NCBI GenBank assembly: GCA_937958625.1
Contig: CALGNO010000145.1
Coordinates: 1-41,006, forward strand
Direction of reading: 5' to 3'
DNA from: an uncultured Neomegalonema sp.
GTDB lineage: Bacteria > Pseudomonadota > Alphaproteobacteria > Rhodobacterales > Rhodobacteraceae
DNA length: 41,006 bases
This document shows, one piece after another, positions 538 to 41,006 of this stretch (positions are counted from its first letter, which is position 1; each line of letters opens with the position of its first letter). The notes under the pieces were generated by a model. That model was not told where the DNA came from and did no database searches. It worked only from the letters and a program-made list of their open reading frames with translations. A program made the translations under genes and the position numbers.

Positions 538-3402
538 TCAAGCGAAGATAAAGTCCTCCGCGCCGAGGTCCGTTGCGGCCACATCCAGCACGACGATGCT
601 GGTGGTGCCGTACTTTACCGATGCACCCAGCTCGTGATCGTCGATCAGCAAATCGCCGAAGCCGCCACCGATGATCTGGATCAGATCAGTGCCAGCCTCG
701 AAATCCTGGATACGATCATTGTCGTCATCGGTCCCGAAAACGAACGTATCGGCCCCGGCCCCGCCATCGAGAATATCCCGTCCAGCCCCGCCTGTCAGAA
801 CGTCATCCCCACCATTGCCGTGCAGGAAATTCGCCTCGGCATCACCGACGAGCACATCGGCGAAATTGGACCCCTGAATATCTTCGATGTTCAAGAGCTG
901 ATCGCCGGTCGCATGGCCGCCGCTTGCGGTGCCTGCCGCGAGGTCGATAACGACAGCCGCATCGGAGCGAAAGTAGTTGACCGTGTCGATCCCCGCGCCG
1001 CCATTCATCGTATCGGCCCCGTCTTCGCCGTGGAGGGCATCCTCTCCATCGCCGCCATTGAGGGTGTCGTCGCCAACAGAGCCGCGCAGGACGTTATCGC
1101 CCGCATCGCCGGTCAGGGTGTCGTCGAAGGCAGAACCCGAAAGGCGTTCGATCGCGACCAGCGTATCCCCCGCAGCCTCGCCCCCCGTGGCCGTTCCGGC
1201 CTCCAGGTTCACATGCACGGCTGCGGCTGAATTGGTGTAGAGCGCGGTATCGGACAGGCTGGCGCCGCCATCGAGGAAATCTGCGCCCGCGCCGCCCTCG
1301 AGCCGGTCTGCACCGCCATTGCCGCGCAGGATGTCGTCGCCGCCTGCCCCGGCGAGCGTATCCTTTTCCGCACTGCCGCTGATTTCATCGGCGAAGCGTG
1401 AGCCCATGATCCGCTCGATCTCGGCGAACGTGTCGCCCTCGGCATCGCCGCCGCTCGCGGTGTTCGCCGCAAGATCGACGGTGACGGCGCTGGCTGAATT
1501 GACGTAGGTGACCCAGTCCTGCCCGATGCCGCCGTCGAAGGTGTCGGCTCCCGCGCCGCCATCGAGAGTATCGTTGCCTGCGCCGCCGATCAGGGTGTCA
1601 TCGCCGTTGCCGCCCTCGAAATGATTGGCGCTCGCATCGCCGACGAACCGGTCGTCATGGTCAGAGCCTCGGATCGCCTCGATATTGATCAGCACGTCAC
1701 CGGCGGCATCACCGCCGGTATGGATGCCGGTGGCGAAATCCATCGTCACGGCTTCGCCGGATCGGTCATAGCTGGCCCAGTCGAACCCGCCGCCCCCGTC
1801 GATGGTGTCGGCCCCGGCCCCGCCGACCAGCATGTCCGCGCCGCCCCCGGCTGAGAGAATGTCGGCACCGCTCCTGCCGAACAAGATATTGGTGCCCGCA
1901 TCGCCGGTCAGGGTGTCGGCATGGTCCGATCCCTGAAGGTTCTCGATGCTGATCAGGGTATCGCCGGTCGCGTCGCCGCCCGAGGTTTCGCCGGTGGTGA
2001 GGCTGACCACGACGCCTTCGGAGGATTCGGTATAGAGCGCCCAGTCGGCTTCCGCGCCGCCATCCAGAATGTCGGCCCCCGTACCGCCGTCGAGCCGGTC
2101 AATCCCGACCCCGCCCGACAGGGTATCGTCGCCGCCCTCGCCGCGCATGAAGTCGCGCGCGTCGCTGCCGGTCAGGGCGTCATCATGGGCCGATCCGGCG
2201 ACGCGCTCGATAGATGTCAGAATATCGCCCTCGGCATGGCCCCCCGCCGCCGTTCCGACATTCAGGTCGATCATCACGCCAGCATCCGAGGACGCGTAGC
2301 TGACCCAGTCCGTGCCGTCCGATCCGTCAAGCGTATCGGCCCCGGCCCCGCCCTCCAGAATGTCATTACCGTCATTGCCGATGACCGTATCGTCACCAGC
2401 CCCCGCCGAGAGGATATCGTCGCCAGCGCCGCTCCGGAGGATATTCGCCGCGTCCGAGCCGGTCAGGACGTCATCCTGATCCGAACCTTGAATGTTCTCG
2501 ACCCCGACCACCGTGTCGCCCTCTGCGGTGCCGCCCGACCCGGTTCCGTCGCCCAGATCGACCGCCACCCCGTCGGCAGAACCGCTGTAATCAACGGTGT
2601 CCGTACCGTCGCCGCCATCAATGAAATCGCCGCCCGCGCCGCCATCGAGGGTGTCATTGCCTGCGCCGCCGCGCATGACATCGTTGCCCTCGCCGCCCGA
2701 GATCGAGCCGTCATCGTCGCCGCCTTCGATCAGGTCTTCGCCATCGGTCCCGGTCAATGTGCCATCGCCTTCGACATAGGCATCGAAATCCCGGTCGAAG
2801 GTGATGCGGTCAAAGGCGGGCAGGCCGATGCCGCCCCCCACTCCCGCAGGATAGGACAACGATACGGCGGCATCGGAGACGGCAATCGGCAGAATCTCCG
2901 CCAGATCGACCACGAGAAACGGATCATCGCCGCCGAGCAGCCCCCCGCCGGTCGCGGCGTCGAGCAATCCGGCCACCACATCTGCCGCACCGTCCAGCAA
3001 GGATGCGGGGTCGATATTATCGACCATCGTCTGCACATCGTCCCAGATCTCGATCCTGGCGATGCCGTTGGTCTCGGATTCGAACGAGACCACGGTCCGG
3101 GTCATGCCCTCGGCAAGTTGCTCGGCAAACAATATATTGCCGCGCGCATCGTACCCGACCACGATCGACCCCGTCGGCGCGCCGTTGAGGGTCGCATCGA
3201 CTTCGCGCACCGGAATACCGAAGCTCGCTGTGACGGGTGTGTAACCAGCAATCCCGTTGGTCGTATATCCCTTGACGACCATATCGTCCGGAAACTCGGC
3301 ATCCAGAGAGACTTCGCCCTGAAGCGAGACCGTATTGCCGTCGAATGTGTATACGGGATCGGTATCGAACAGTTGTTCGTCGTTAAATTCAATTGTGCGC
3401 AT
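538..3402 (-). CDS. RTX-repeat calcium-binding protein, probable type I-secreted surface protein or adhesin
   Basis: 954 residues with no N-terminal signal peptide. Residues 1-210 form a domain I do not recognise. From about residue 215 the protein is built of GGxGxDxLx nonapeptides (for example GGAGNDTLDGGAGGD). These are arranged in seven modules of about 90 residues, each opening with a D[WT]xxYxxS...VxVxL...GG segment followed by a GDtlxxIExixGS segment and an RTX block. The C-terminus (GADTFVFGTDDDNDRIQDFE onward) resembles serralysin-type C-terminal domains that carry the uncleaved type I secretion signal. RTX nonapeptides fold into calcium-bound beta-rolls outside the cell. No ABC/MFP/TolC exporter genes lie in the window. 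The ATG is preceded by AGGAGA at 8-nt spacing. A strongly acidic, repetitive composition fits an extracellular protein. Function is inferred. Confidence 0.9.
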   Translation of the reverse strand: MRTIEFNDEQLFDTDPVYTFDGNTVSLQGEVSLDAEFPDDMVVKGYTTNGIAGYTPVTASFGIPVREVDATLNGAPTGSIVVGYDARGNILFAEQLAEGMTRTVVSFESETNGIARIEIWDDVQTMVDNIDPASLLDGAADVVAGLLDAATGGGLLGGDDPFLVVDLAEILPIAVSDAAVSLSYPAGVGGGIGLPAFDRITFDRDFDAYVEGDGTLTGTDGEDLIEGGDDDGSISGGEGNDVMRGGAGNDTLDGGAGGDFIDGGDGTDTVDYSGSADGVAVDLGDGTGSGGTAEGDTVVGVENIQGSDQDDVLTGSDAANILRSGAGDDILSAGAGDDTVIGNDGNDILEGGAGADTLDGSDGTDWVSYASSDAGVMIDLNVGTAAGGHAEGDILTSIERVAGSAHDDALTGSDARDFMRGEGGDDTLSGGVGIDRLDGGTGADILDGGAEADWALYTESSEGVVVSLTTGETSGGDATGDTLISIENLQGSDHADTLTGDAGTNILFGRSGADILSAGGGADMLVGGAGADTIDGGGGFDWASYDRSGEAVTMDFATGIHTGGDAAGDVLINIEAIRGSDHDDRFVGDASANHFEGGNGDDTLIGGAGNDTLDGGAGADTFDGGIGQDWVTYVNSASAVTVDLAANTASGGDAEGDTFAEIERIMGSRFADEISGSAEKDTLAGAGGDDILRGNGGADRLEGGAGADFLDGGASLSDTALYTNSAAAVHVNLEAGTATGGEAAGDTLVAIERLSGSAFDDTLTGDAGDNVLRGSVGDDTLNGGDGEDALHGEDGADTMNGGAGIDTVNYFRSDAAVVIDLAAGTASGGHATGDQLLNIEDIQGSNFADVLVGDAEANFLHGNGGDDVLTGGAGRDILDGGAGADTFVFGTDDDNDRIQDFEAGTDLIQIIGGGFGDLLIDDHELGASVKYGTTSIVVLDVAATDLGAEDFIFA

Positions 3403-3456
3403 GACTTATTCTCCTATTGGTTGCAGGAGAAGCATTACGTTATTTTGGTTGTATGT

Positions 3457-3485
3457 ATATTAAATACTCGTTTTTAGACTTTAAA
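3457..3485 (-). promoter_or_regulatory. candidate promoter of the RTX gene
   Basis: On the minus strand TTTAAA (3485-3480) and TAATAT (3462-3457) are separated by 17 bp, about 55 bp upstream of the RTX ATG. The 3403-3639 gap is strikingly AT-rich against its GC-rich surroundings. The -10 overlaps an imperfect palindrome, GTATATTAAATAC (3455-3467), which resembles sites upstream of the exopolysaccharide unit (see 12927-13249). Each hexamer matches consensus at only 4 of 6 positions. Confidence 0.35.
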
Positions 3486-3600
3486 CATTGAGTTAAAGTT
3501 GTAAAAACTGGCATATTTTCAAGTTACATGCCTTTGAATTTGAAAGGAAAAAGCGTTCCAAGAGCTGTGCAATCGAATACGATCTGATTTCGATGCAACT

Positions 3601-3631
3601 GCAAGACGGTTAGAAATTGGCCCGGTCTTGC
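3601..3631 (-). terminator. inverted repeat just downstream of the large DUF11/barrel gene
   Basis: GCAAGAC (3601-3607) and GTCTTGC (3625-3631) are perfect 7-bp arms, extendable by two pairs with a one-base bulge. They sit 9 nt past the stop codon of the 1942-residue gene. There is no U-run after the stem on the transcribed strand, so this may be an mRNA 3'-end stabiliser or a Rho-assisted terminator rather than a classic intrinsic one. Confidence 0.35.
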
Positions 3632-3639
3632 TCGTCAGC

Positions 3640-6600
3640 TCAGTCGATCAGATTCAGGGCGTCGGACAAGCCGAGCTTGTCGAATTCATCCCACACCGAA
3701 CCGTCGAATTTCAGTCTCAGCCGGGCATAGAAACCGGACTGATAGAGATCACGTAGGCGGTCTTGTTTGACGCCGATATGGTTATAGCCAATGCCGATCT
3801 GTACGTTCTCGATAACATTGGCCTTCAGTTCGACCCCGACGGCGGCGCTGAGATTATCGCCGTTGTCGTCACTGAAAACGGCGACATGGCCCCCGAGCGC
3901 GATCCGGTCGCGACCCTGTTCATCTTTCAGAACATCGACCTCGACCCCGGCGCGGGCGAGATGCAGGGTCGAGGACAGGGTTTGCGAGTCCGTCTTGATC
4001 TCGAAAGCCTCGCCCGCGATCTTGGCGTTCAGGCGCAGGTCGCCGGTGGCCGAATAGATCACGGCGGTGCTCCAGCGGTGCGAGGACTCGGTCAGCTCGG
4101 TCGCGTCATCCAGCTCATATTCATAAAGCGCCAGTGCCTTGATCCGGCTGTCATCCGCCGGACGCCAAGCAAATCCGATCCGCATCCGGTCGCGCAGGCG
4201 GGTTTCGTCGCGCAGGTCTATGGCGAGCCGATTGCGGAACAGCAGGCTGAAATCCTGATTCAACTCGTACCCGAGCGCGGTATCGAGATAGACGCCATAG
4301 CCTTCGGTATCGCGGTCGAGTTCCAGATCATTGCTGGCAATCAACCCCGTTTCGTCATTCTCGTAGGTGACGCCGAAGGTCGCCGCCGATGAGCGGTCAT
4401 CGCCCCCGGCGACGGGTTCCAGATGCTCGGCCCCCATGCGCATGGACAGGCGGTCGTCGAGCTTCCAGTCGCCCTTGACGCCACTGGCAACCCCGCCTGT
4501 ACCCTCGCCGCTTTGTCTGAATTCGCTGAACGTGCTGACCTCGGGGCTGAACTGATATTCGGCCCCGACCTTGGTCGTCAGGCTGGGAGCATCGCCGCCG
4601 CCGAGACCGAAAAAGCCGCTCTCGGTGCTGGATATCTCGTTGATGGCGTGAAAGCGCAGCGCGGGGCTGTACTGGTAATCGCCGCCGAGGACCAAACGCC
4701 AGTTTTCGGCATCGAGGAAGTCTTGTTCGTATTCTGCGCTTAGGGTTGTGCCCGCGATGAACTCGGGGCTGTAATCGACGCCGATGATGCCGCTGAGAAC
4801 GCGTTCCGTGTCGCCGTTGCCGCCGGTTTCGGTCGCACGCACGCCGCCGATGATCGCAAGGGCCGGACTGACCGCGTAGCGCCCCTTCAGTTCGGTGCCG
4901 ACCCTGCGCTCGCCGGTCTCCAGGCTGCGTGAATAGATCGTGTCCGTCGTGACGTCGGCGTTTTCGCTCAGGCGATGGCCGGTGCTGACGCGCACTTCCT
5001 CGCGCCCCGGGCTGAGCGAGGCATTGGGGGCATCGAAGCTCTCTTCCGTCCGTGCCACCTCAGCCCGGATGGAATGATTTTCGGTCTTGATCTCGTAGGA
5101 GGCCCGCGCGCCGATGCCGGTATCGCCGGTCTGGTCCTCGGTCTGCGCAAGCTCGATTTGCACCTTGCCCCAGCCCTTCAGGTCGGCCTCGGCATAGCCC
5201 GAGCGAACCGTGCGGCGTTCATCGACATCGCGGCTGGCATCCGAGCGGACCTCGCGATAGCCGACGGCGATGCCCTCCACCGGCTCCACGCGGACCTCGG
5301 CACCGAAGATGTAATAGCTCTCGCCCGCGCCCTCGTCGGTCTCGTAGGTGATGCGGATCGAGACCGGGTTCAGGTCATCGTTGATCAGCGGCACGGGGCG
5401 ATTGAACAGCAGCGACCCACGAAAGAAGTCGATGGTGTAATCGCTCAGCCGGTTTTGTCTCACGGCGGTGAGGATGATAGCGGGCTGGTCGCGGTCGCGG
5501 GTGATGATCTCGACGATCTCGCTGCCGTCGATCAGGCCGGGCAGATCGACGTCATAGGGGCCGGAGACACCGCGCCCCGGAATCTCGATCACGCGCTGGG
5601 CCTCGTTTGTCTCCGCGACGAAGACATCGACGGTGACGGTGTCATTCTCGTAATGGGCGCGCGCCCCGGTCAGCGAGCGGCGATAGGCCCCCAGCCGGAT
5701 CGCATCCGCCTGGGCCTGGATCGCGACGTCGCCATAAAGGATGTAGGACTGCCCGCGCTCGACCTTGACGTAAAGCGGCGAGTCCGACTGGGCGTCGAAC
5801 CCGCGCTCTGAATTGTCGCCGTAGACCGGATAGAATTCGTCGCTGGCAATGTCGCGGAACAGACGCTCGCCGGTATCCCGGTCGCCGTCATAGCGCAGGG
5901 TCAGCAGGTTTTCGCCGAGGATCTTGCCCTTGAGATAAAGCTGCCCGCGTAGGCCGTCGGTGGTTTCTTCGAAGGCTGAGAGGTCGTCTTTCTCGACGTA
6001 ACCCTCGATCGAGTCGCCCTCCTTGCCGAAGGAATACGCGCCTTCGACGACGCCGACAAAGATGCGCTCGCTCAGGTCGGGGACAAAGCCGATCTCGGCC
6101 TCGGCCTTGGCGAAATCGGCCTCGACGCCGATGATCTCGCCGCCCACGAGGTCGGGGGGGATAAAGTCAAAGCTCGCCTCGCCGTCGTCGATATACGTTT
6201 GCAAGCCGAAGACAGTGTCGCGAATATCGCGAACATCCCACTGGCCCTTTTGCGAGGTCAGCGTCACCTCGGCGGGGCTGCGCACCAGACGGCCCTCGTC
6301 ATCGACCACGCGCACCACAATCGGTATCCGCGCCCGGGCATCCGCCGGGGCCTTGTCCGGCGCAACGATCACGAGGGCAGCAGGTTTGCCCGGGGCAAAG
6401 ACCTTGATTTCCTCGCGCCCGCGATCATTGCCGAACGGATCGGTGACGATCACGGCGATGGTGTTCTCTTTCGGCTTGAGGCCCAGCGCGATGTATTCGA
6501 GCAATTGCACGCCGCTTTCGCTGTCGATGGCCGTGGCCCCGATCTTCGAGCGCGGAATGTCCTCGCCGTTCAGTTCCAGGCGCAGAGTGCCCTCCATCGG

Positions 6601-32716: not shown

Positions 32717-34876
32717 ATGTCTTATCTGAAACCTTGCGGGACGTTCCTGGTGGCGCTGGTGGTCTGCGGACCGGCCCCGGCGGATATTTTCGGCGCTCCT
32801 GTCGAGGAACCGCCGGTCATCCACAGTCATTACGGCGGTGTTGGCCTGCTGCGCACGCGGACGGCGCGCATGGCGGCGGATTCGACCCTTGCCGCCAGCG
32901 TGAGCTGGGCCGAGAATCAACAGCGTTATGGACTGACTTTTCAGGCGGCTCCGTGGCTGGAAACGACCTTTTCCTACTCTGGTTTTGACCGTTCGCCGCC
33001 GCTGAGCGATACTTTTGATCGCCAATTCGACATCAAGATCAAGCTGTGGAACGAGAGCACGTATATTCCGCAGGTTGCCGTCGGCCTTCAGGATTTTCTC
33101 GGCACGGGATTGTTCTCCGGTGAATATGTGGTTGCCAGCAAGCGCCTTGGCCCCCTTGATCTGAGCTTCGGCGTCGGCTGGGGTCAGCTTGGCTCGCGCG
33201 GTGATCTGGACAACCCCTTGCGCATCGTGTCGGACCGTTTTCGCAGCCGCACAGATACGGATGGCGGCGGTCAGGTCAATTTCGGCGAATTCTTCTCGGG
33301 CGAGGATGTCGGCTTTTTCGGGGGTGTTTCGTACCAGACCCCGATCGAGGGGCTTCAGCTCGTCGCCGAATACGATGGTGATGACAGGTCCGCCGTCGAC
33401 GGCCTGAGCAGTAATCCGCTCAATTTCGGGGCGGTCTATAATCTGTCGCCCGGCATCCAGTTGACCGCGTCGTATCTGGGGATGGAGGACATCAATCTTC
33501 AGGCGACGATTTCTGCGCCGGTCGGAGAGAATGTTCAGCCTACGCCGACGGGATCGCCGCCGCCGCTGTTTTATGTTCGCGAAGATATTCCGGCACCGGA
33601 TGGCGGGGCCGATGGGTTGATCGCGCCGGTTGCACCGCCCTTGTTCACGCCCCTCGATCCCGCTGACCCTAGCTATACCGAGACCATCGGTGCCGATCTG
33701 GCGCGGCTTGGTGTCGATTTGCTGTCGGTGGAAACCGGCGAGAATGCCGTTCGGGTGCGGGTCGAGAACAGCCGCTATCGCTCGGCATCGAAGGCCGTGG
33801 GCCGGGTTGCGCGCATCCTGTCGCGCTATGCCCCCGCATCCATCGAAACCTTCCAAGTGGTTTTGGTGACCCGCAATCTGGAAAGCGCCGAATTCAAGCT
33901 CAATCGCACAATCCTCGAAGAATCGGCGCGCGAGATTGGCTATTCGATGGCCCCGCCCGCGCTCGGCTTTGCCTATATCCCGCCGGGCAGCGAGCCGGTG
34001 AACGGACGCTTTGCGAGCGTCGAGAGCTATCCGAAGTTCGATTGGTCGGTCGGGCCGGACGTGCGCTATGGCTTGTTCGATCCCTCCGATCCCCTGCGTG
34101 TCGATATACGCGCCCAAGCCTCGGGCCGCGTCGATATTGCGCCGGGCCTTTCAGTGACCGGTCAGGCCTCGGCATCGCTGTTCGGCAATATCGATGATGC
34201 GTTGCTGAATACGAACTCGCAACTGCCGCAGGTCAGAACGAACGCCGCGCGCTATAATGACGAGACGACCATCGGTATCGACCGGCTGGTCGGCGAATAC
34301 CTGTTCCAGCCTGCGCCGAATGTCTATGCCAAGGCGTCCGCCGGATTGCTGGAACAGATGTTTGGCGGGGCGGGCGGCGAGGTTTTGTGGCGACCGCCGA
34401 ATTCGCGCCTCGCCTATGGCGCTGAGGTCTATTACGCCCGCCAGCGCGATTTCGACACGCTGCTGACGTTCCAAGATTATGACGTCGTGACGGGGCATGC
34501 CAGCGTCTATTGGGACACGCCCTATGCCCATTGGGATGTCGCCCTACATGCCGGGCGCTATCTGGCCAAGGACTGGGGCGCGACGGTCGAGGTGTCTCGC
34601 CGCTTCCCGAACGGGTGGGAAATCGGTGCCTTTGCGACCCTGACCGATGTGCCGTTCGACGAATTCGGCGAGGGCAGCTTTGACAAGGGCATCACCCTCA
34701 GCGTGCCGCTGGATTGGGGTTTGCCGCGCGATACCAAGGCCAGTGCGGGGTTGAACCTGCGTCCGATTCAGCGTGATGGCGGTGCCCGCCTGAATCCGGG
34801 GTCGCGGCTTTATCGCCTGACCCGTGAAGGGTCGCGGGGCGAGGTCGCACCCCAGTGGAACAGCTTTGCGCATTGA
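32717..34876 (+). CDS. yjbH: YjbH-family outer-membrane protein for exopolysaccharide export
   Basis: 719 residues, close to the E. coli length. The signal peptide (LKPCGTFLVALVVCGPAPA) is followed by HSHYGGVGLLRTRTARMAAD, the family's recognisable opening, and then by long runs of amphipathic beta-strands. These appear in two halves around a central periplasmic-like region (TIGADLARLGVDLLSVETGE, 342-361). YjbH proteins are predicted outer-membrane barrels needed for export or retention of the Yjb/group-4-capsule-type polysaccharide. The C-terminus DWGLPRDTKASAGLNLRPIQ is also typical. It is transcribed away from the polysaccharide unit and followed 10 bp later by yjbF. The homologues of yjbE and yjbG are not seen. 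Confidence 0.88.
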   Translation: MSYLKPCGTFLVALVVCGPAPADIFGAPVEEPPVIHSHYGGVGLLRTRTARMAADSTLAASVSWAENQQRYGLTFQAAPWLETTFSYSGFDRSPPLSDTFDRQFDIKIKLWNESTYIPQVAVGLQDFLGTGLFSGEYVVASKRLGPLDLSFGVGWGQLGSRGDLDNPLRIVSDRFRSRTDTDGGGQVNFGEFFSGEDVGFFGGVSYQTPIEGLQLVAEYDGDDRSAVDGLSSNPLNFGAVYNLSPGIQLTASYLGMEDINLQATISAPVGENVQPTPTGSPPPLFYVREDIPAPDGGADGLIAPVAPPLFTPLDPADPSYTETIGADLARLGVDLLSVETGENAVRVRVENSRYRSASKAVGRVARILSRYAPASIETFQVVLVTRNLESAEFKLNRTILEESAREIGYSMAPPALGFAYIPPGSEPVNGRFASVESYPKFDWSVGPDVRYGLFDPSDPLRVDIRAQASGRVDIAPGLSVTGQASASLFGNIDDALLNTNSQLPQVRTNAARYNDETTIGIDRLVGEYLFQPAPNVYAKASAGLLEQMFGGAGGEVLWRPPNSRLAYGAEVYYARQRDFDTLLTFQDYDVVTGHASVYWDTPYAHWDVALHAGRYLAKDWGATVEVSRRFPNGWEIGAFATLTDVPFDEFGEGSFDKGITLSVPLDWGLPRDTKASAGLNLRPIQRDGGARLNPGSRLYRLTREGSRGEVAPQWNSFAH

Positions 34877-34886
34877 GGATCTGATT

Positions 34887-35579
34887 ATGACTTCGAGATT
34901 TTCGCTCTGCGCAGCCGGTATCGTCGCCCTCGGAACCCTCGCGGCGTGCTCGAACGGCGATTTTATCTATGGCAAGGCGCTGGGTGATCTGGCGTCGTTC
35001 ACCGGGATCACGACCGGTCTCGAGGAAGTCGACCCGAATACGGCTGAGATCGCGGTGACGCCTGCGGATGCGGAGCCGCCGCTGGTTGTGGGTTTCGAGG
35101 CAATCCGGGTGGCGATACCGTTCGCCGGGGCCAGCGGACCGAGCAAGACCTATGTCTCGCCGGATAACGTCGTGATCGCGATGAATGGGCCATTCGTGAC
35201 CCGCGCGACCGGCATCGGTGCCGATCTGAACGGCGGTTATCTGCCCGCCGGAAGCCCGTGGTTCGGCAACCTCGCCGCTGCGGCTGACGAAGGTGCCAGC
35301 AGTGACCGGGTGCTGGAATACTGGGAGCTGGGCCGTCTGACCCGCGCCAAGTTTCGGTGCGATCTCAGCACATCGCCGCGGGCGGATGGCGGACAGGTGA
35401 TCGAGGAATACTGCAAACGGTATTTCGAACCGGAAGAGTTTACCAACCGCTATTGGACCCGCGCTGATGGCAGCGTCGAATGTTCGCTGCAACAATTCCA
35501 CCCGCAGCTTTCCCAGCTCCAGTTCTTTGCGACCGAGCAACAGGCGTTGACGCTGAACCTGACCGAACAGGGCTGCTAG
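34887..35579 (+). CDS. yjbF: YjbF-family lipoprotein
   Basis: 230 residues from an ATG with GAGGA 8 nt upstream. A start further upstream would overlap yjbH and bury the export signal. The lipobox is LAAC with Cys21, in MTSRFSLCAAGIVALGTLAA followed by C. The mature part resembles YjbF/GfcB, the exopolysaccharide lipoprotein family: EPPLVVGFEAIRVAIPF, a basic-acidic central region with YWELGRLTRAKFRC, and late cysteines. It is presumably anchored in a membrane facing the periplasm. It probably acts with YjbH in handling the polymer made by the adjacent genes; the physical partner is inferred from gene pairing. Its stop lies 6 bp from that of a convergent gene. Confidence 0.85.
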   Translation: MTSRFSLCAAGIVALGTLAACSNGDFIYGKALGDLASFTGITTGLEEVDPNTAEIAVTPADAEPPLVVGFEAIRVAIPFAGASGPSKTYVSPDNVVIAMNGPFVTRATGIGADLNGGYLPAGSPWFGNLAAAADEGASSDRVLEYWELGRLTRAKFRCDLSTSPRADGGQVIEEYCKRYFEPEEFTNRYWTRADGSVECSLQQFHPQLSQLQFFATEQQALTLNLTEQGC

Positions 35580-37819: not shown

Positions 37820-39565
37820 CTATCGCCGCCGGAACCACAGCAGATAGATCACAAGACCGGCTATGAACCCTCCCAACGGGATCGGGATGACCGCCACCAC
37901 GGCCAGAATCGACAAGAGCACTTTCCACGGCCACGCCATTGCCGCGCCGCGTGTAGGACGCGCGCTTGGTGTGGCCGTGGGTGGGGTTTGTGCGCCTGTT
38001 CTGCCGGTCGTGCGGGTGCGGGGGACTTGGGAGGCGGCGGGTTTTGGTTGATAGCCGCTCGGTTTGGCGACCTGTTCCAGTTCCGGCATCGCCTTTTTTT
38101 TCGGTGTCCACCAGTTTGCCGAGGGCGCGGTGCCCTTTGCCGCAGCCTCGCGCAAAGACGACGCGGTTTCGGGGCGCGGGGCTGGCGCACCGTGTATCTT
38201 GCGCGCCTGTGCCGTCAGGGCGGCGACCCCGTCGCCATGGACCATCTCCAGAAATTGCGCATAGCCCAGCGCGCTTGATTTGGGCGACCCACGCCGGAAG
38301 GGGCCATCGGCAATGCCAAGCTCGGTGTGGTGCAGGTGGGCCTTGAACTTGCGGCGCTCTTTTCGCGAAACGCTGAGGCCGTCATTGACGGTGATGCCTG
38401 TCACCTCTTGCCGCGAGCCGCGCCGCATAATCCGGGTCTTGTCTTCGTTGAGGGTGAAGCCCTCGTCCTCGATGATGTTGCGCACGGACCAGAGCAGCTT
38501 ACGCAGGGAGGTGCCGTCATCCTCAGCGGCGGAAAACGTCAGGTCGTCGGCGTAGCGGGTGTAGACAAACCCGTATTTCCCGGCGACGCCGTTCATGCGC
38601 CGGTCCAGCCTTCGGCACAGCAGATTGGTGATTGCGGGTGAGGTCGGCGCGCCCTGGGGCAGCACCCGCTCGCCATTGGCCACATGCCATGAGCGGCCAT
38701 CCAGCGTCATTTCCGTGCGGTCGGCCTCGGTCGCGAGCAGGGCGAAAACCGCCGCCTGCGCCTCGGCATAGCCGAAGGAGCGGAAGAGGCCCTTCACGCG
38801 GCGGTAGCTGATGCTCGGGAAAAAATCCTTCAGGTCGAGATTGATGACCACCGCCTGTTTTTGATGCGGCGCGGCGTTGGTCAGGATCGAGCGACCGATG
38901 CGAAACCCGTGGGCGGCCTCGTGCGGCTCGACTTTTTCCAGCACGGTATCGAGCAGCCAGTATTGCGCGCGTTTCAGGCGCGGCATCGGGGCAGACAGCG
39001 TGCGATAGCCGCCGGTTTTCTTCGGGATGCGGAACCGTTGATAGTGGGTCACGGTCGAGGCCGCGCGATCATAGGCAAGGAACCGCAGTTCGGCGATTTC
39101 GATCCCCATCGCCTCGGCGATTCCGGCTACGTCGTCAAAGGCGGGCACGCCATGGGCTTTCAGGCGCTCGGGATTGGCGCCGCGTTCGGACAGGGCCGCC
39201 GAGACCGTGTCGCCGAGATGCACGATGTCGTCGCTGCGCCGTTGGTGCCATGCGAGAGCGCGGTCGTGGCGCGCCTTGGCTTGCCGCTCCTTGGTTTCGA
39301 TCCGGCGGGCGCGCGCCTCGGCCATGCGCTGTTTCATGATCTCGCGCAGGGCACGGTCGGGGTTGCGCCAGCCTCGGGCTTTCGAGGCCAGATCGGTGAT
39401 TTCTTTCTGAAGTTCGCCGCGCCGCTTGACCATTTCGGCGGGCAGGTCGTTCACCGGGTCATCGGCCTTCCAGAACCCGTGACGGATCATTTCTTCGAGC
39501 GTCACCTCATCGAGGGAGGATTCGCGGATGCGATCATAGAGTTGCTGGCGGGTATCGCTGGTCAT
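37820..39565 (-). CDS. retron reverse transcriptase with C-terminal membrane hairpin
   Basis: 581 residues. Polymerase motifs: RFRIPKKTGGYRTLSAP (177-193), INLDLKDFFPSISYRRV (241-257), LPQGAPTSPAITNLL (302-316), YTRYADDLTFS (335-345) with the catalytic YADD, and LNEDKTRIM (372-380). Two retron-specific marks are present: NAAPH (230-234), fitting NAxxH, and VTG (388-390) in the template-recognition thumb. The first ~160 residues are a charged, partly coiled-coil extension. After the polymerase comes a Pro/Thr/Ala-rich linker (about 505-545) and two closely spaced hydrophobic helices (546-578) ending WFRRR, so the enzyme may be membrane-bound. It should reverse-transcribe the RNA predicted at 39696-39917 into msDNA. 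With the SWIM-protein gene it probably forms an anti-phage retron. Confidence 0.93.
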   Translation of the reverse strand: MTSDTRQQLYDRIRESSLDEVTLEEMIRHGFWKADDPVNDLPAEMVKRRGELQKEITDLASKARGWRNPDRALREIMKQRMAEARARRIETKERQAKARHDRALAWHQRRSDDIVHLGDTVSAALSERGANPERLKAHGVPAFDDVAGIAEAMGIEIAELRFLAYDRAASTVTHYQRFRIPKKTGGYRTLSAPMPRLKRAQYWLLDTVLEKVEPHEAAHGFRIGRSILTNAAPHQKQAVVINLDLKDFFPSISYRRVKGLFRSFGYAEAQAAVFALLATEADRTEMTLDGRSWHVANGERVLPQGAPTSPAITNLLCRRLDRRMNGVAGKYGFVYTRYADDLTFSAAEDDGTSLRKLLWSVRNIIEDEGFTLNEDKTRIMRRGSRQEVTGITVNDGLSVSRKERRKFKAHLHHTELGIADGPFRRGSPKSSALGYAQFLEMVHGDGVAALTAQARKIHGAPAPRPETASSLREAAAKGTAPSANWWTPKKKAMPELEQVAKPSGYQPKPAASQVPRTRTTGRTGAQTPPTATPSARPTRGAAMAWPWKVLLSILAVVAVIPIPLGGFIAGLVIYLLWFRRR

Positions 39566-39598
39566 CGCACCACCCCTGTCAGTGGGGTCGTGGCGTCC

Positions 39599-39680
39599 TT
39601 CGAGACGCGGCTGCGCCGCTCCTCAGGATAAGGATGACGCGATGGCCTCATGCTGAGGAGGCGGGCAGTGCCGTCTCGAA
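39599..39680. repeat. alphaproteobacterial-type cloverleaf palindromic repeat between the retron RNA and its reverse transcriptase
   Basis: Outer arms TTCGAGACG (39599-39607) and CGTCTCGAA (39672-39680) are perfect. Inside are GCGGC/GCCGC (39607-39619) and CTCCTCAG (39619-39626) / CTGAGGAG (39653-39660). This element resembles one I recall from intergenic regions of many alphaproteobacteria. It lies between the a2 arm and the start of the reverse transcriptase gene. Confidence 0.75.
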
Positions 39681-39695
39681 GCATCAGGCAGTGAT

Positions 39696-39917
39696 GGAAA
39701 GGCACGCGGCGGACTTTCGAACAAGTCCCGGCGCTGGAACGCTCAACTCCAGGGCCATGCGCCCCACCGTGCGACTTCGACTTCAAGGAAGTCATACCGC
39801 GAAGCGCACGGTGGGGCGACATGGCCCATATGAAGAGCGCGCCAGCGATGCATGTGCGGTCAATGGGCAAGGACGGCGAAACACCGCCCGGATTGCAAAG
39901 CCGCCGCGCGCCTTTCC
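39696..39917 (-). ncRNA. predicted retron msr-msd RNA
   Basis: Read on the minus strand, the RNA would open with a1, GGAAAGGCGCGCGGCGG (39917-39901), and close with a2, CCGCCGCGTGCCTTTCC (39712-39696). These pair over 17 bp with a single G-U, and a further CTTT/AAAG extension is possible across a one-base bulge. Just inside a1 is a small msr hairpin, GGGCGG (39889-39884) / CCGTCC (39876-39871). The centre is a long nested hairpin (39752-39827), the likely msd. In known retrons the branching G follows a1 as AGC; here TGC with G at 39896 is the positional equivalent, a weak point. The RNA lies just upstream of the reverse transcriptase on the same strand, as expected. About 222 nt in total. Confidence 0.82.
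39752..39827 (-). repeat. long nested hairpin, probable msd core
   Basis: On the minus strand GGGCCATG pairs with CATGGCCC. CGCCCCACCGTGCG pairs with CGCACGGTGGGGCG, and CTTCG pairs with CGAAG. The segments are separated only by single-base bulges, for 27 bp. Above a 7-nt bulge, ACTTC/GAAGT adds a 5-bp tip with a CTT loop. Such a stem is far beyond chance and has the shape of the double-stranded part of an msDNA. Confidence 0.9.
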
Positions 39918-39925
39918 TGAGAGAG

Positions 39926-39954
39926 ACGCTAACGCGGGTCGCGAGTCGCGGCAA
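39926..39954 (-). promoter_or_regulatory. weak candidate promoter for the retron RNA
   Basis: TTGCCG (39954-39949) and TAGCGT (39931-39926) with 17-bp spacing place a start site within a few bases of the a1 arm, as expected for a separate msr-msd transcript. The -10 matches consensus poorly (3 of 6), so the position is the main support. Confidence 0.25.
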
Positions 39955-39986
39955 GGGCGTGCGTTGTGGCGAGGCCCCCACCCCGA

Positions 39987-40007
39987 CCCTCCCCCGAGGG
40001 GGGAGGG
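39987..40007. repeat. C/G-rich intergenic hairpin
   Basis: CCCTCCCCC (39987-39995) and GGGGGAGGG (39999-40007) form a 9-bp stem with a 3-nt loop. It resembles dispersed GGGAGGG-type intergenic palindromes and may help end the SWIM-gene transcript before the retron RNA. Confidence 0.5.
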
Positions 40008-40029
40008 GGAAGAATGTGCCGCATCGCGA

Positions 40030-40061
40030 AAGCCCTCCCCCCGCAAACGAGGAGAGGGCTT
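40030..40061 (-). terminator. hairpin after the SWIM-protein gene
   Basis: AAGCCCTC (40030-40037) and GAGGGCTT (40054-40061) are perfect arms beginning about 21 nt past the stop codon of the SWIM-protein gene. No U-run follows on the transcribed strand, so termination strength is uncertain. Confidence 0.35.
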
Positions 40062-40082
40062 CGACCGTGCTGTACCGCGCCA

Positions 40083-41006
40083 TCACGCCTTCGCCTCCCA
40101 CGGGCCACGCAGGACGCGGCCCGCCTGTCCGCCCTCGGCGGCGACTCGGCGCAGGGCGAGGATATGCTCGCACGGCCCTTTGCGCAGGGCGTTCATGCGG
40201 AAGAAATTACAGCCGCATTGGGCATCGGCCAGCCGTTCGTCACCGTCCAGCGCGACACTGACCCGCAGGTCGCGCCCATTATCGGTGACGCGGCCCTCGG
40301 CGGCGCGGCTGTGGCGGCGGGTCAACTCGACCATGCCGCCGAGAATCAGGCGATCGGCGCGTCGCTCCTCGTCGGACTGGAAGCGCATGGCCTCAAAGTC
40401 CATCGGCTCGCGCACCATGTCGCGGTACCGCCAGAGGCGCTTGTCGAGGTCGTACATGGCGCGGCCATGCTGAGTCAGGATGGTCAGGGCCGAGGCGACT
40501 TCGGTGCGTTCCAGCCCGGTCGCTGTCATCAATTCGGCCTCATCGGCCATCCAGCGCGAGGCGAGGGCGGAGAATACCCGTTCGCGGGTCTCGGTCGCGA
40601 TCCGGCGGCGCGGGGCGAGCAGGTCGAATTGTCCGGCGCGGGACCAGTCATTCGCGGTCCAGCCCGACAGGCCAAGGGTAAAGCTCATCGGGCCGAGATC
40701 GGCGACCACAAAGGCCGGCATTCCGTTGCCGAGCAGATAAAGATCAAAGCTGCGTGCGACCGGGATCAGCCGCTCAAGGATCAAGAGCCGCCGCCGTCCC
40801 CAGACCCGAATCTCCGCAGGGTCGCTGCCATGATAGACCGCGCGGGGGCAGGGGATGCGCGTGCCCCATGGCTCGAACACCATTTCCGGCGCTTCGCCCG
40901 GTTTCAGCACAAACTTCAGCGAGCGCGGGCCATTGCGCTCTTTTTTGGATTTCAGCGCAAAGCACAGATTGTGGACATCCATCGGATGCAGGGTCACGCG
41001 ATGGGC
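40083..41006 (-). CDS. winged-helix + SWIM zinc-finger protein, retron partner (N-terminus outside window)
   Basis: At least 307 codons; the frame is open to the right edge. The in-frame GTG at 40997 is probably internal, since the following sequence already reads like the middle of a domain (EIRVWGRRRLLILERLIPVA, MSFTLGLSGWTANDWS). Counting from that GTG, a winged helix fits about 130-195 (TRERVFSALASRWMADEAEL, then EVASALTILTQHGRAMYDLD and LWRYRDM). A SWIM finger follows: C261-x-C263-x12-C276-x-H278, in AQCGCNFF...KGPCEHILAL. SWIM fingers bind zinc and usually mediate DNA or protein contact. As I recall the retron classification, type XIII systems pair the reverse transcriptase with such a WHSWIM protein and an ARM-repeat protein. 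The ARM gene would then lie just beyond the window. Toxic effector or adaptor role is inferred. Confidence 0.85.
   Translation of the reverse strand, partial: AHRVTLHPMDVHNLCFALKSKKERNGPRSLKFVLKPGEAPEMVFEPWGTRIPCPRAVYHGSDPAEIRVWGRRRLLILERLIPVARSFDLYLLGNGMPAFVVADLGPMSFTLGLSGWTANDWSRAGQFDLLAPRRRIATETRERVFSALASRWMADEAELMTATGLERTEVASALTILTQHGRAMYDLDKRLWRYRDMVREPMDFEAMRFQSDEERRADRLILGGMVELTRRHSRAAEGRVTDNGRDLRVSVALDGDERLADAQCGCNFFRMNALRKGPCEHILALRRVAAEGGQAGRVLRGPWEAKA

What the first reader, a model, noticed from the sequence alone, without database searches (positions are those of the whole stretch)
37820..41006. Retron locus: reverse transcriptase, structured RNA and winged-helix/SWIM partner
Three independent signs converge. 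The reverse transcriptase has the retron marks NAxxH (230-234) and VTG (388-390) besides YADD. The gap upstream has an a1/a2-bounded structured RNA. The next gene encodes a winged helix plus a C-x-C-x12-C-x-H SWIM finger. From memory this gene content corresponds to type XIII retrons, for which little mechanistic work is known to me. Retrons are anti-phage systems, so this locus is a defence candidate.
Basis: partly seen in the sequence, partly recalled or inferred. Interest (0 to 1): 0.9.

Follow-up and report, generated by a model that had tools for sequence, protein, structure and literature searches.

The report
Membrane-tethered retron with a DNA clamp
This is a type XIII retron, a bacterial gene set that likely protects its host from viruses; its reverse transcriptase is predicted to sit in the cell membrane, and one partner protein is predicted to have the ring-clamp fold that holds enzymes onto DNA, which would be a new way for such a system to work.

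Summary
Confirmed: 37820-41006 (minus strand) holds most of a type XIII retron. The RT (581 aa) matches PADLOC RT_XIII (E 4e-175) and falls in a fully supported type XIII group. The next gene is the C-terminal part of SWIM_XIII, cut by the contig end. The WGR/HEAT-ARM gene and the SWIM start lie at the end of another contig of the same genome. Between SWIM and RT is a 226-nt RNA (39694-39919) with a 17-bp a1/a2 helix; 15 loci share its fold (42 of 61 pairs show changes on both sides).

Anti-phage function, msDNA and clamp action are untested. The locus is a new member of a known type; clamp and hairpin make a little-studied type testable.

The parts
37820..39565 (-). Type XIII retron reverse transcriptase, 581 aa
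   Evidence: PADLOC RT_XIII 4e-175; Pfam RVT_1 6.8e-26; tree; Foldseek best PDB match retron Ec86 RT
37832..37936 (-). RT residues 544-578: C-terminal hydrophobic helical hairpin, predicted membrane anchor
   Evidence: hydropathy 2.49 at residues 550-568; AF2 helices 544-559 and 565-578, pLDDT blocks 71-81; 111 of 120 listed type XIII RTs vs 0 of 108 controls
37937..38125 (-). RT residues 481-543: linker; 506-540 with pLDDT under 50; its start carries the conserved W485-W486-x-P488
39696..39712 (-). a2 arm of the retron RNA
   Evidence: pairs with a1 over 17 bp in the minimum-energy and centroid folds; helix varies with compensation in relatives
39694..39919 (-). Retron non-coding RNA (msr-msd), limits set by hand at a1 and a2
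   Evidence: z -11.5; covariation in 15 loci; no Rfam family
39752..39827 (-). msd-like long stem-loop
   Evidence: inverted repeat; helix 5: 23 of 26 pairs with changes on both sides
39871..39889 (-). msr hairpin GGGCGGUGUUUCGCCGUCC, nearly invariant
   Evidence: helix 3, 100% of cells paired
39896..39896 (-). Invariant G of UUGC just inside a1: candidate branching guanosine (inferred from position, by recalled analogy with other retrons)
   Evidence: invariant column G24
39901..39917 (-). a1 arm of the retron RNA
39926..39954 (-). Promoter-like TTGCCG-N17-TAGCGT, ending 6 nt before the RNA
   Evidence: pattern chosen after seeing the data
40083..41006 (-). C-terminal 307 residues of the SWIM_XIII partner (5' end cut by the contig end)
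   Evidence: PADLOC SWIM_XIII 4.4e-112
40653..41006 (-). Part of SWIM_XIII that corresponds to the last third of the PCNA-like clamp (relative's residues 249-366)
   Evidence: fold from the relative L038; register from tblastn
40425..40595 (-). Winged-helix-like region (relative's residues 386-442)
   Evidence: HHH-beta-beta order in the model; weak Pfam HTH_9 0.056; weak PDB match to TFE 0.14
40152..40259 (-). SWIM zinc finger, C-x-C-x12-C-x-H
   Evidence: Pfam SWIM 2.1e-5, residues 250-285; the three Cys and the His invariant in 14 relatives, His at 90% or more in 50

Best explanation
This is a type XIII retron, whose RT likely makes msDNA from the adjacent RNA and is predicted to hold it at the inner membrane through a C-terminal hairpin, while the SWIM partner is predicted to be a PCNA-like clamp that would close round the msDNA duplex or invading DNA, and the whole likely serves as an anti-phage device. 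Shown by sequence: the four parts (WGR/HEAT-ARM gene, SWIM gene, structured RNA, RT), their order in complete relatives and their conservation. Predicted from models: the membrane hairpin and the clamp fold. Inferred only: the clamp and the WGR/HEAT-ARM protein bind the RT-msDNA complex and are kept inactive there; a phage product that cuts, binds or modifies msDNA frees or re-loads them; this stops infection, probably at the cost of the cell. Separate likelihoods in my judgement: type XIII membership 0.97, clamp fold 0.9, membrane insertion 0.75, clamp acting on msDNA or phage DNA 0.35.
Against: No experiment. The window's own SWIM is incomplete, so the clamp is modelled on the same-genus relative L038 (77.5% identical over the shared 307 residues), and only one model was made. 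No clamp family was found by sequence (Pfam; PDB sequences), so the relation is by fold alone at about 10% identity. The enrichment of conserved basic residues in the four inner helices is weak with strict helix limits (6 of 20, p 0.067; 0.098 without the insert) and p 0.005 only with limits that I had widened; two of the four helices are near neutral. The two hairpin helices are short (16 and 14 residues), so it may be re-entrant or interfacial rather than a full crossing. 9 of 120 RTs lack it; 5 of the 108 control RTs are cut at the end of their locus and many are near copies. Pfam WGR was weak in 2 of 4 ARM proteins scanned and absent from the window genome's own. No clamp-loader ATPase is among the operon's genes. 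No domain with known toxic activity was found.
Confidence: 0.5

Rival explanations
1. The C-terminal hairpin of the RT is itself the effector: an RT-2TM fusion that damages the membrane when msDNA is disturbed, with the clamp-SWIM and WGR/HEAT-ARM proteins as regulators that sense or shield the msDNA.
For: No other candidate toxin domain was found in the operon's proteins; the hairpin is kept while its sequence varies. Other retron types fuse effector domains to the RT (PADLOC model names RT-Toprim, RT-TIR, RT-Protease), and type IV retrons have a two-TM effector (recalled).
Against: The hairpin has no match in PADLOC and none above cut-off in Pfam (3 tails tried); five relatives seem to have a short basic tail instead; long disordered linkers are typical of tethers (recalled).
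Confidence: 0.25
2. An ordinary type XIII retron in which the clamp fold and hairpin are structural details; the effector is an unrecognised activity of the WGR/HEAT-ARM protein (for example cleavage or trapping of host nucleic acid).
For: The ARM protein is the largest and most divergent part (22-26% identity to those of the other families) and has no assigned catalytic domain; WGR domains bind DNA ends (recalled; PADLOC names it WGR_XIII; Pfam WGR only 0.0075-0.0087 in 2 of 4).
Against: The best PDB sequence matches are designed helical repeats, E 5e-5 and 2e-4; no structure of it was predicted here.
Confidence: 0.2
3. Not a defence system: a chromosomally fixed retron with a housekeeping role, such as genome maintenance through a clamp and a break-binding protein.
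For: Between the same two neighbours (an oxidoreductase gene and an HI0933-like gene) in G054 and G1522, and in the own genome as far as two contigs show, with an RT fragment beside HI0933 in G1520: 4 of the 6 genomes examined, of 14 in the genus. The best 80 of 374 viral loci reached at most 39% identity and matched no RT residue before 119.
Against: Patchy: 4 of 394 family genomes, own included, have a strong RT_XIII match; 3 of 219 and 7 of 200 genomes in two other families, the known carriers included, have SWIM_XIII, unlike a housekeeping gene. Retrons with tested function are described as defence systems (PMC12548924, start of abstract and one passage seen).
Confidence: 0.1
4. The RT belongs to a group II intron, DGR or DRT system and the RNA is a chance palindrome.
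For: RVT_1 is shared by all of these (recalled; match).
Against: Scores against group II maturase and DRT models are far below cut-off (71 of 300, 39 of 390 bits); the tree; no Rfam match; covariation. DGR was not tested directly.
Confidence: 0.01

Closest known systems
Type XIII retrons (PADLOC RT_XIII, SWIM_XIII, WGR_XIII/HEAT-ARM_XIII; classification of Mestre et al. 2020, recalled, paper not held)
   Same: RT, long SWIM piece and ARM protein match at E under 1e-100; order ARM-SWIM-RNA-RT as in the complete relatives
   Different: Operon split by an assembly gap; a dispersed repeat lies between RNA and RT. The hairpin and clamp fold reported here concern the type as a whole and were not found in the papers searched
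Retron Ec86 and Eco7 RTs with solved structures (7v9x, 9kjx)
   Same: RT core fold: TM 0.74 and 0.72 by target; a1/a2-bounded RNA (recalled for them)
   Different: Their chains have about 310-330 residues, too few for the long N-terminal helices and the C-terminal linker plus hairpin; their partners are not clamps (recalled)
PCNA and other sliding clamps
   Different: About 10% identity; an insert at about residues 60-135; winged-helix-like region and SWIM finger added; no loader in the operon
Retron-free SWIM protein beside a DUF6493 protein (L068)
   Same: The SWIM protein is a relative (hhalign 99.8%, columns 140-543)
   Different: No match to this RT in the 10-kb stretch fetched; the DUF6493 neighbour is not detectably related to the ARM protein

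Membership tests
Type XIII retron | RT of the type XIII clade | tested here: met
Type XIII retron | Retron RT motifs NAxxH, YADD, VTG | tested here: met
   Invariant in the 22 aligned RTs; that these mark retrons is recalled
Type XIII retron | SWIM partner | tested here: met
   C-terminal part; N-terminal 91 aa on C195; middle not sequenced
Type XIII retron | WGR/HEAT-ARM partner | tested here: met
   L047:1895-5050, WGR_XIII 4e-199, on another contig; adjacency shown in L038 and L169
Retron | a1/a2-bounded msr-msd RNA next to the RT | tested here: met
Retron | Branching guanosine and 2'-5' linked msDNA | not testable with these tools
   An invariant G inside a1 is only a candidate
Retron | msDNA made in cells | not testable with these tools
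   Needs extraction
Anti-phage defence system | Protects against phage | not testable with these tools
   Inference from family
Group II intron RT | Matches the maturase model above its cut-off | tested here: not met
   TIGR04416 71.1 bits of 300
DRT defence RT | Matches Drt2, Drt3a or Drt4 model above its cut-off | tested here: not met
   38.8 of 390, 34.6 of 200, 15.1 of 450 bits
DGR | Template repeat and variable repeat | not tested
   No DGR model or TR/VR search was run
Sliding clamp (PCNA-like), for SWIM_XIII | Clamp fold | tested here: met
   On the AF2 model of L038 SWIM:
Sliding clamp (PCNA-like), for SWIM_XIII | Sequence match to a clamp family | tested here: not met
   None up to E 0.5 in Pfam for two full-length SWIM proteins or E 1 in PDB sequences for the profile; hence 'clamp fold', not 'member of the PCNA family'
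Sliding clamp (PCNA-like), for SWIM_XIII | Basic inner helices | tested here: inconclusive
   One helix +4 to +5 in all 50 sequences, another +1.2 on average, two near neutral; strict enrichment p 0.067
Sliding clamp (PCNA-like), for SWIM_XIII | Closed ring on DNA | not testable with these tools
   No multimer prediction on hand

The most novel reading that the evidence does not exclude
Type XIII retrons are clamp retrons: a membrane-tethered reverse transcriptase displays msDNA as a loading site for a bacterial PCNA-like ring (clamp, winged helix, SWIM finger), and phage attack on the msDNA releases that ring onto phage DNA or the replisome. This would be the first retron, and the first bacterial immune system that my searches show, built on a PCNA-type clamp.
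Probability: 0.3. Interest if true: 0.93.

Novelty: new member of a known kind. Interest (0 to 1): 0.72.

Why it matters
I found no mechanistic paper on type XIII in the library searched. A covariation-supported RNA, a predicted membrane anchor on the RT and a PCNA fold in a bacterial protein give three separable, testable handles on how this retron type senses and acts. A PCNA-type clamp in a bacterial accessory operon would also matter for the history of sliding clamps.

Tried and rejected
Genome scan for close RT relatives gave one locus (Muricauda, 31% over the RT core); it was not used. Viral scan: the best 80 of 374 matched at 29-39% identity and no residue before 119, so none was taken as type XIII; they served as controls. 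A first control of 25 other RTs (one locus unread) was replaced by the 108. Phage records had no SWIM match; plasmids had one SWIM match, in a full locus on a 2.8-Mb Methylobacterium record. Rfam gave nothing. I considered that the SWIM and ARM pair derives from the SWIM and DUF6493 pair of L068; the SWIM side holds, the ARM side does not show (hhalign probability 0.1%). I considered the conflict systems of eLife 52696 (PMC7159879): a term search of its main text found no SWIM and no WGR. PADLOC and Pfam searches with three hairpins alone gave no usable match. The promoter pattern (9 of 15 loci vs 204 of 15000 random windows) was noticed by eye in the same data and is only suggestive. The structural second look barely tested residues outside 34-366 of the SWIM model.

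Rows left out before counts: the tree used 43 of 108 control RTs, 4 of 14 locus RTs and 15 listed type XIII proteins besides the window; A1 used 22 of 120 listed RTs; A5 used 44 of 120 listed SWIM proteins plus 6 loci; A2 used all 15 loci with both genes then in hand (L068 without RT, and the later L168 and L169, not included). The protein searches list the best 120 of 7763 and of 3700; nothing beyond them was tested.
Full report
What is there. The minus strand of 37820-41006 carries, in order of transcription, the 3' part of a SWIM gene (40083-41006), a 517-bp gap, and an RT gene (37820-39565). The RT matches PADLOC RT_XIII with 581 bits (E 4e-175) against 311 bits for the next model; the SWIM fragment matches SWIM_XIII (E 4.4e-112) over profile positions 214-503 of 509. 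NAxxH, YADD and VTG are at the stated residues and are invariant in the 22 aligned RTs, window included.

The rest of the operon. The contig ends at 41006. In the same genome, contig C195 (5313 bp, L047) ends with an ORF of 1051 aa (1895-5050) that matches WGR_XIII (4e-199) and HEAT-ARM_XIII (best 7e-23), overlapped by the first 91 residues of SWIM_XIII at the contig end. Pfam lists no WGR for this protein up to E 0.5, and weak ones for two of three relatives. In the same-genus relative G054 (L038) the same genes stand as ARM 677-3820, SWIM 3820-5487 and RT from 5789.

The RNA. The 15 loci in hand that have both SWIM and RT all carry, between them, a related RNA of 223-236 nt, with limits that I set by hand at a1 and a2. 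It has an a1/a2 helix (17 pairs in the window), an invariant UUGC inside a1, a nearly invariant hairpin, and a long stem whose sequence changes while pairing is kept. RNAalifold gives 61 pairs, 42 with changes on both sides. Of the cells, 92.2% are paired against 70.4% after shuffling and 39-47% after sliding; 195 cells show double changes against a mean of 72 shuffled and 27-56 slid. The window copy folds 11.5 standard deviations better than shuffled sequence and has no other full copy in its genome. No Rfam model matches. The structure counted was derived from the same alignment, which favours it on cells paired; the double changes are the stronger evidence.

Phylogeny. A tree of 63 RTs (quick IQ-TREE, 337 columns) puts the window with 19 other type XIII RTs on one side of a branch with SH-aLRT 100; the other side holds 41 retron-like RTs from family genomes and viral contigs and two distant RTs of unknown kind used as root. 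On the RT model (mean pLDDT 82.8), Foldseek ranks retron RTs 1-18 and the first group II intron RT 19.

Membrane hairpin. Of the 120 RTs listed closest to the window, itself included, 111 have a segment of mean hydropathy at least 1.6 over 19 residues that reaches into the last 110 residues, 109 at 1.8 and 90 at 2.0. The same test on 108 other RTs found none; 5 of those are cut at the end of their locus and many are near copies of each other. Of 120 SWIM partners, 6 have any such segment anywhere. Of the nine exceptions, three look truncated, five end in a short basic tail and one has a different long tail (my reading of the tails). The model gives two helices, 544-559 and 565-578 (pLDDT blocks 71-81), after a linker with pLDDT under 50 at 506-540. 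The linker begins with a conserved segment (R472, A476, G478, P481, W485, W486, P488), a possible docking site.

Spread and setting. Strong RT_XIII matches (E under 1e-150) occur in 4 of 394 family genomes, own included. SWIM_XIII matches: 5 of 398 phylum genomes, own included, one weak; 2 of 385 class genomes, own included; 3 of 219 and 7 of 200 in the families of two other carriers, the known carriers included. In the genus, 13 of 14 genomes have the HI0933-like neighbour. I looked at 6 of the 14: G054 and G1522 have the retron between HI0933 and the oxidoreductase gene, the own genome has these parts on two contigs, G1520 has an RT fragment beside HI0933 at a contig end, and the fetched stretches of G1518 and G1524 show none. 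The best 80 of 374 viral loci include no close type XIII RT by identity.

Mechanism. Reported for other retrons: the RT, RNA and RT-DNA complex holds a toxic effector until a phage triggers it (PMC12548924, start of abstract in a listing and one passage); msDNA of Eco8 senses phage SSB (PMC13158370, start of abstract in a listing). By analogy I infer that the WGR/HEAT-ARM protein and the clamp-SWIM protein form the effector module of this type, held by RT-msDNA at the membrane. Which part is toxic is not known; the RT hairpin itself is the main rival.

Literature. Searches for retron with 'type XIII', with 'XIII', with SWIM and msDNA, with classification terms, with WGR or transmembrane, with WHSWIM or Ne144, with membrane-anchored, and for SWIM zinc finger or retron with sliding clamp or PCNA listed no paper that, by title and start of abstract, treats a type XIII retron mechanism, a membrane-anchored retron RT or a clamp-fold SWIM protein. 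Several lists were capped (25 of 115, 15 of 2746, 12 of 29, 12 of 18). The defining classification paper and the experimental census are not held. So this is not proof of absence from print.

Noticed in passing
39596-39684: Dispersed palindromic repeat between the retron RNA and the RT; 57 of the 59 matches listed lie elsewhere in the genome, some at one place on both strands, with 40 of 193 candidates scored. The a2-to-RT distance is 128 nt here and 35 nt in L038, so it probably inserted in this lineage.
   Followed up: partly
39930-40082: C-rich palindromic stretch just after the SWIM stop, with 8 weaker matches elsewhere in the genome.
   Followed up: partly
L068:4299-8263: SWIM_XIII relative with no match to this RT in the 10 kb fetched, next to a DUF6493/DUF7825 protein and near an integrase and a KfrA gene: a retron-free SWIM plus large-partner pair.
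   Followed up: partly
P0060, P0070, P0100, P0101, P0105: Type XIII RTs that lack the hairpin but end in a short basic tail that looks amphipathic, perhaps a substitute membrane contact.
   Followed up: no
RT residues 471-488 (about 38102-38155): Conserved segment with WWxP at the start of an otherwise variable linker; could dock on the clamp or ARM partner.
   Followed up: no
P0115: Vibrio nigripulchritudo relative named RT-Ne144 by a source; Ne144 is, from memory, an msDNA of Nannocystis exedens, which would be an existing msDNA to compare.
   Followed up: no
32717-35579: YjbH and YjbF/GfcB-like exopolysaccharide genes near the retron.
   Followed up: no
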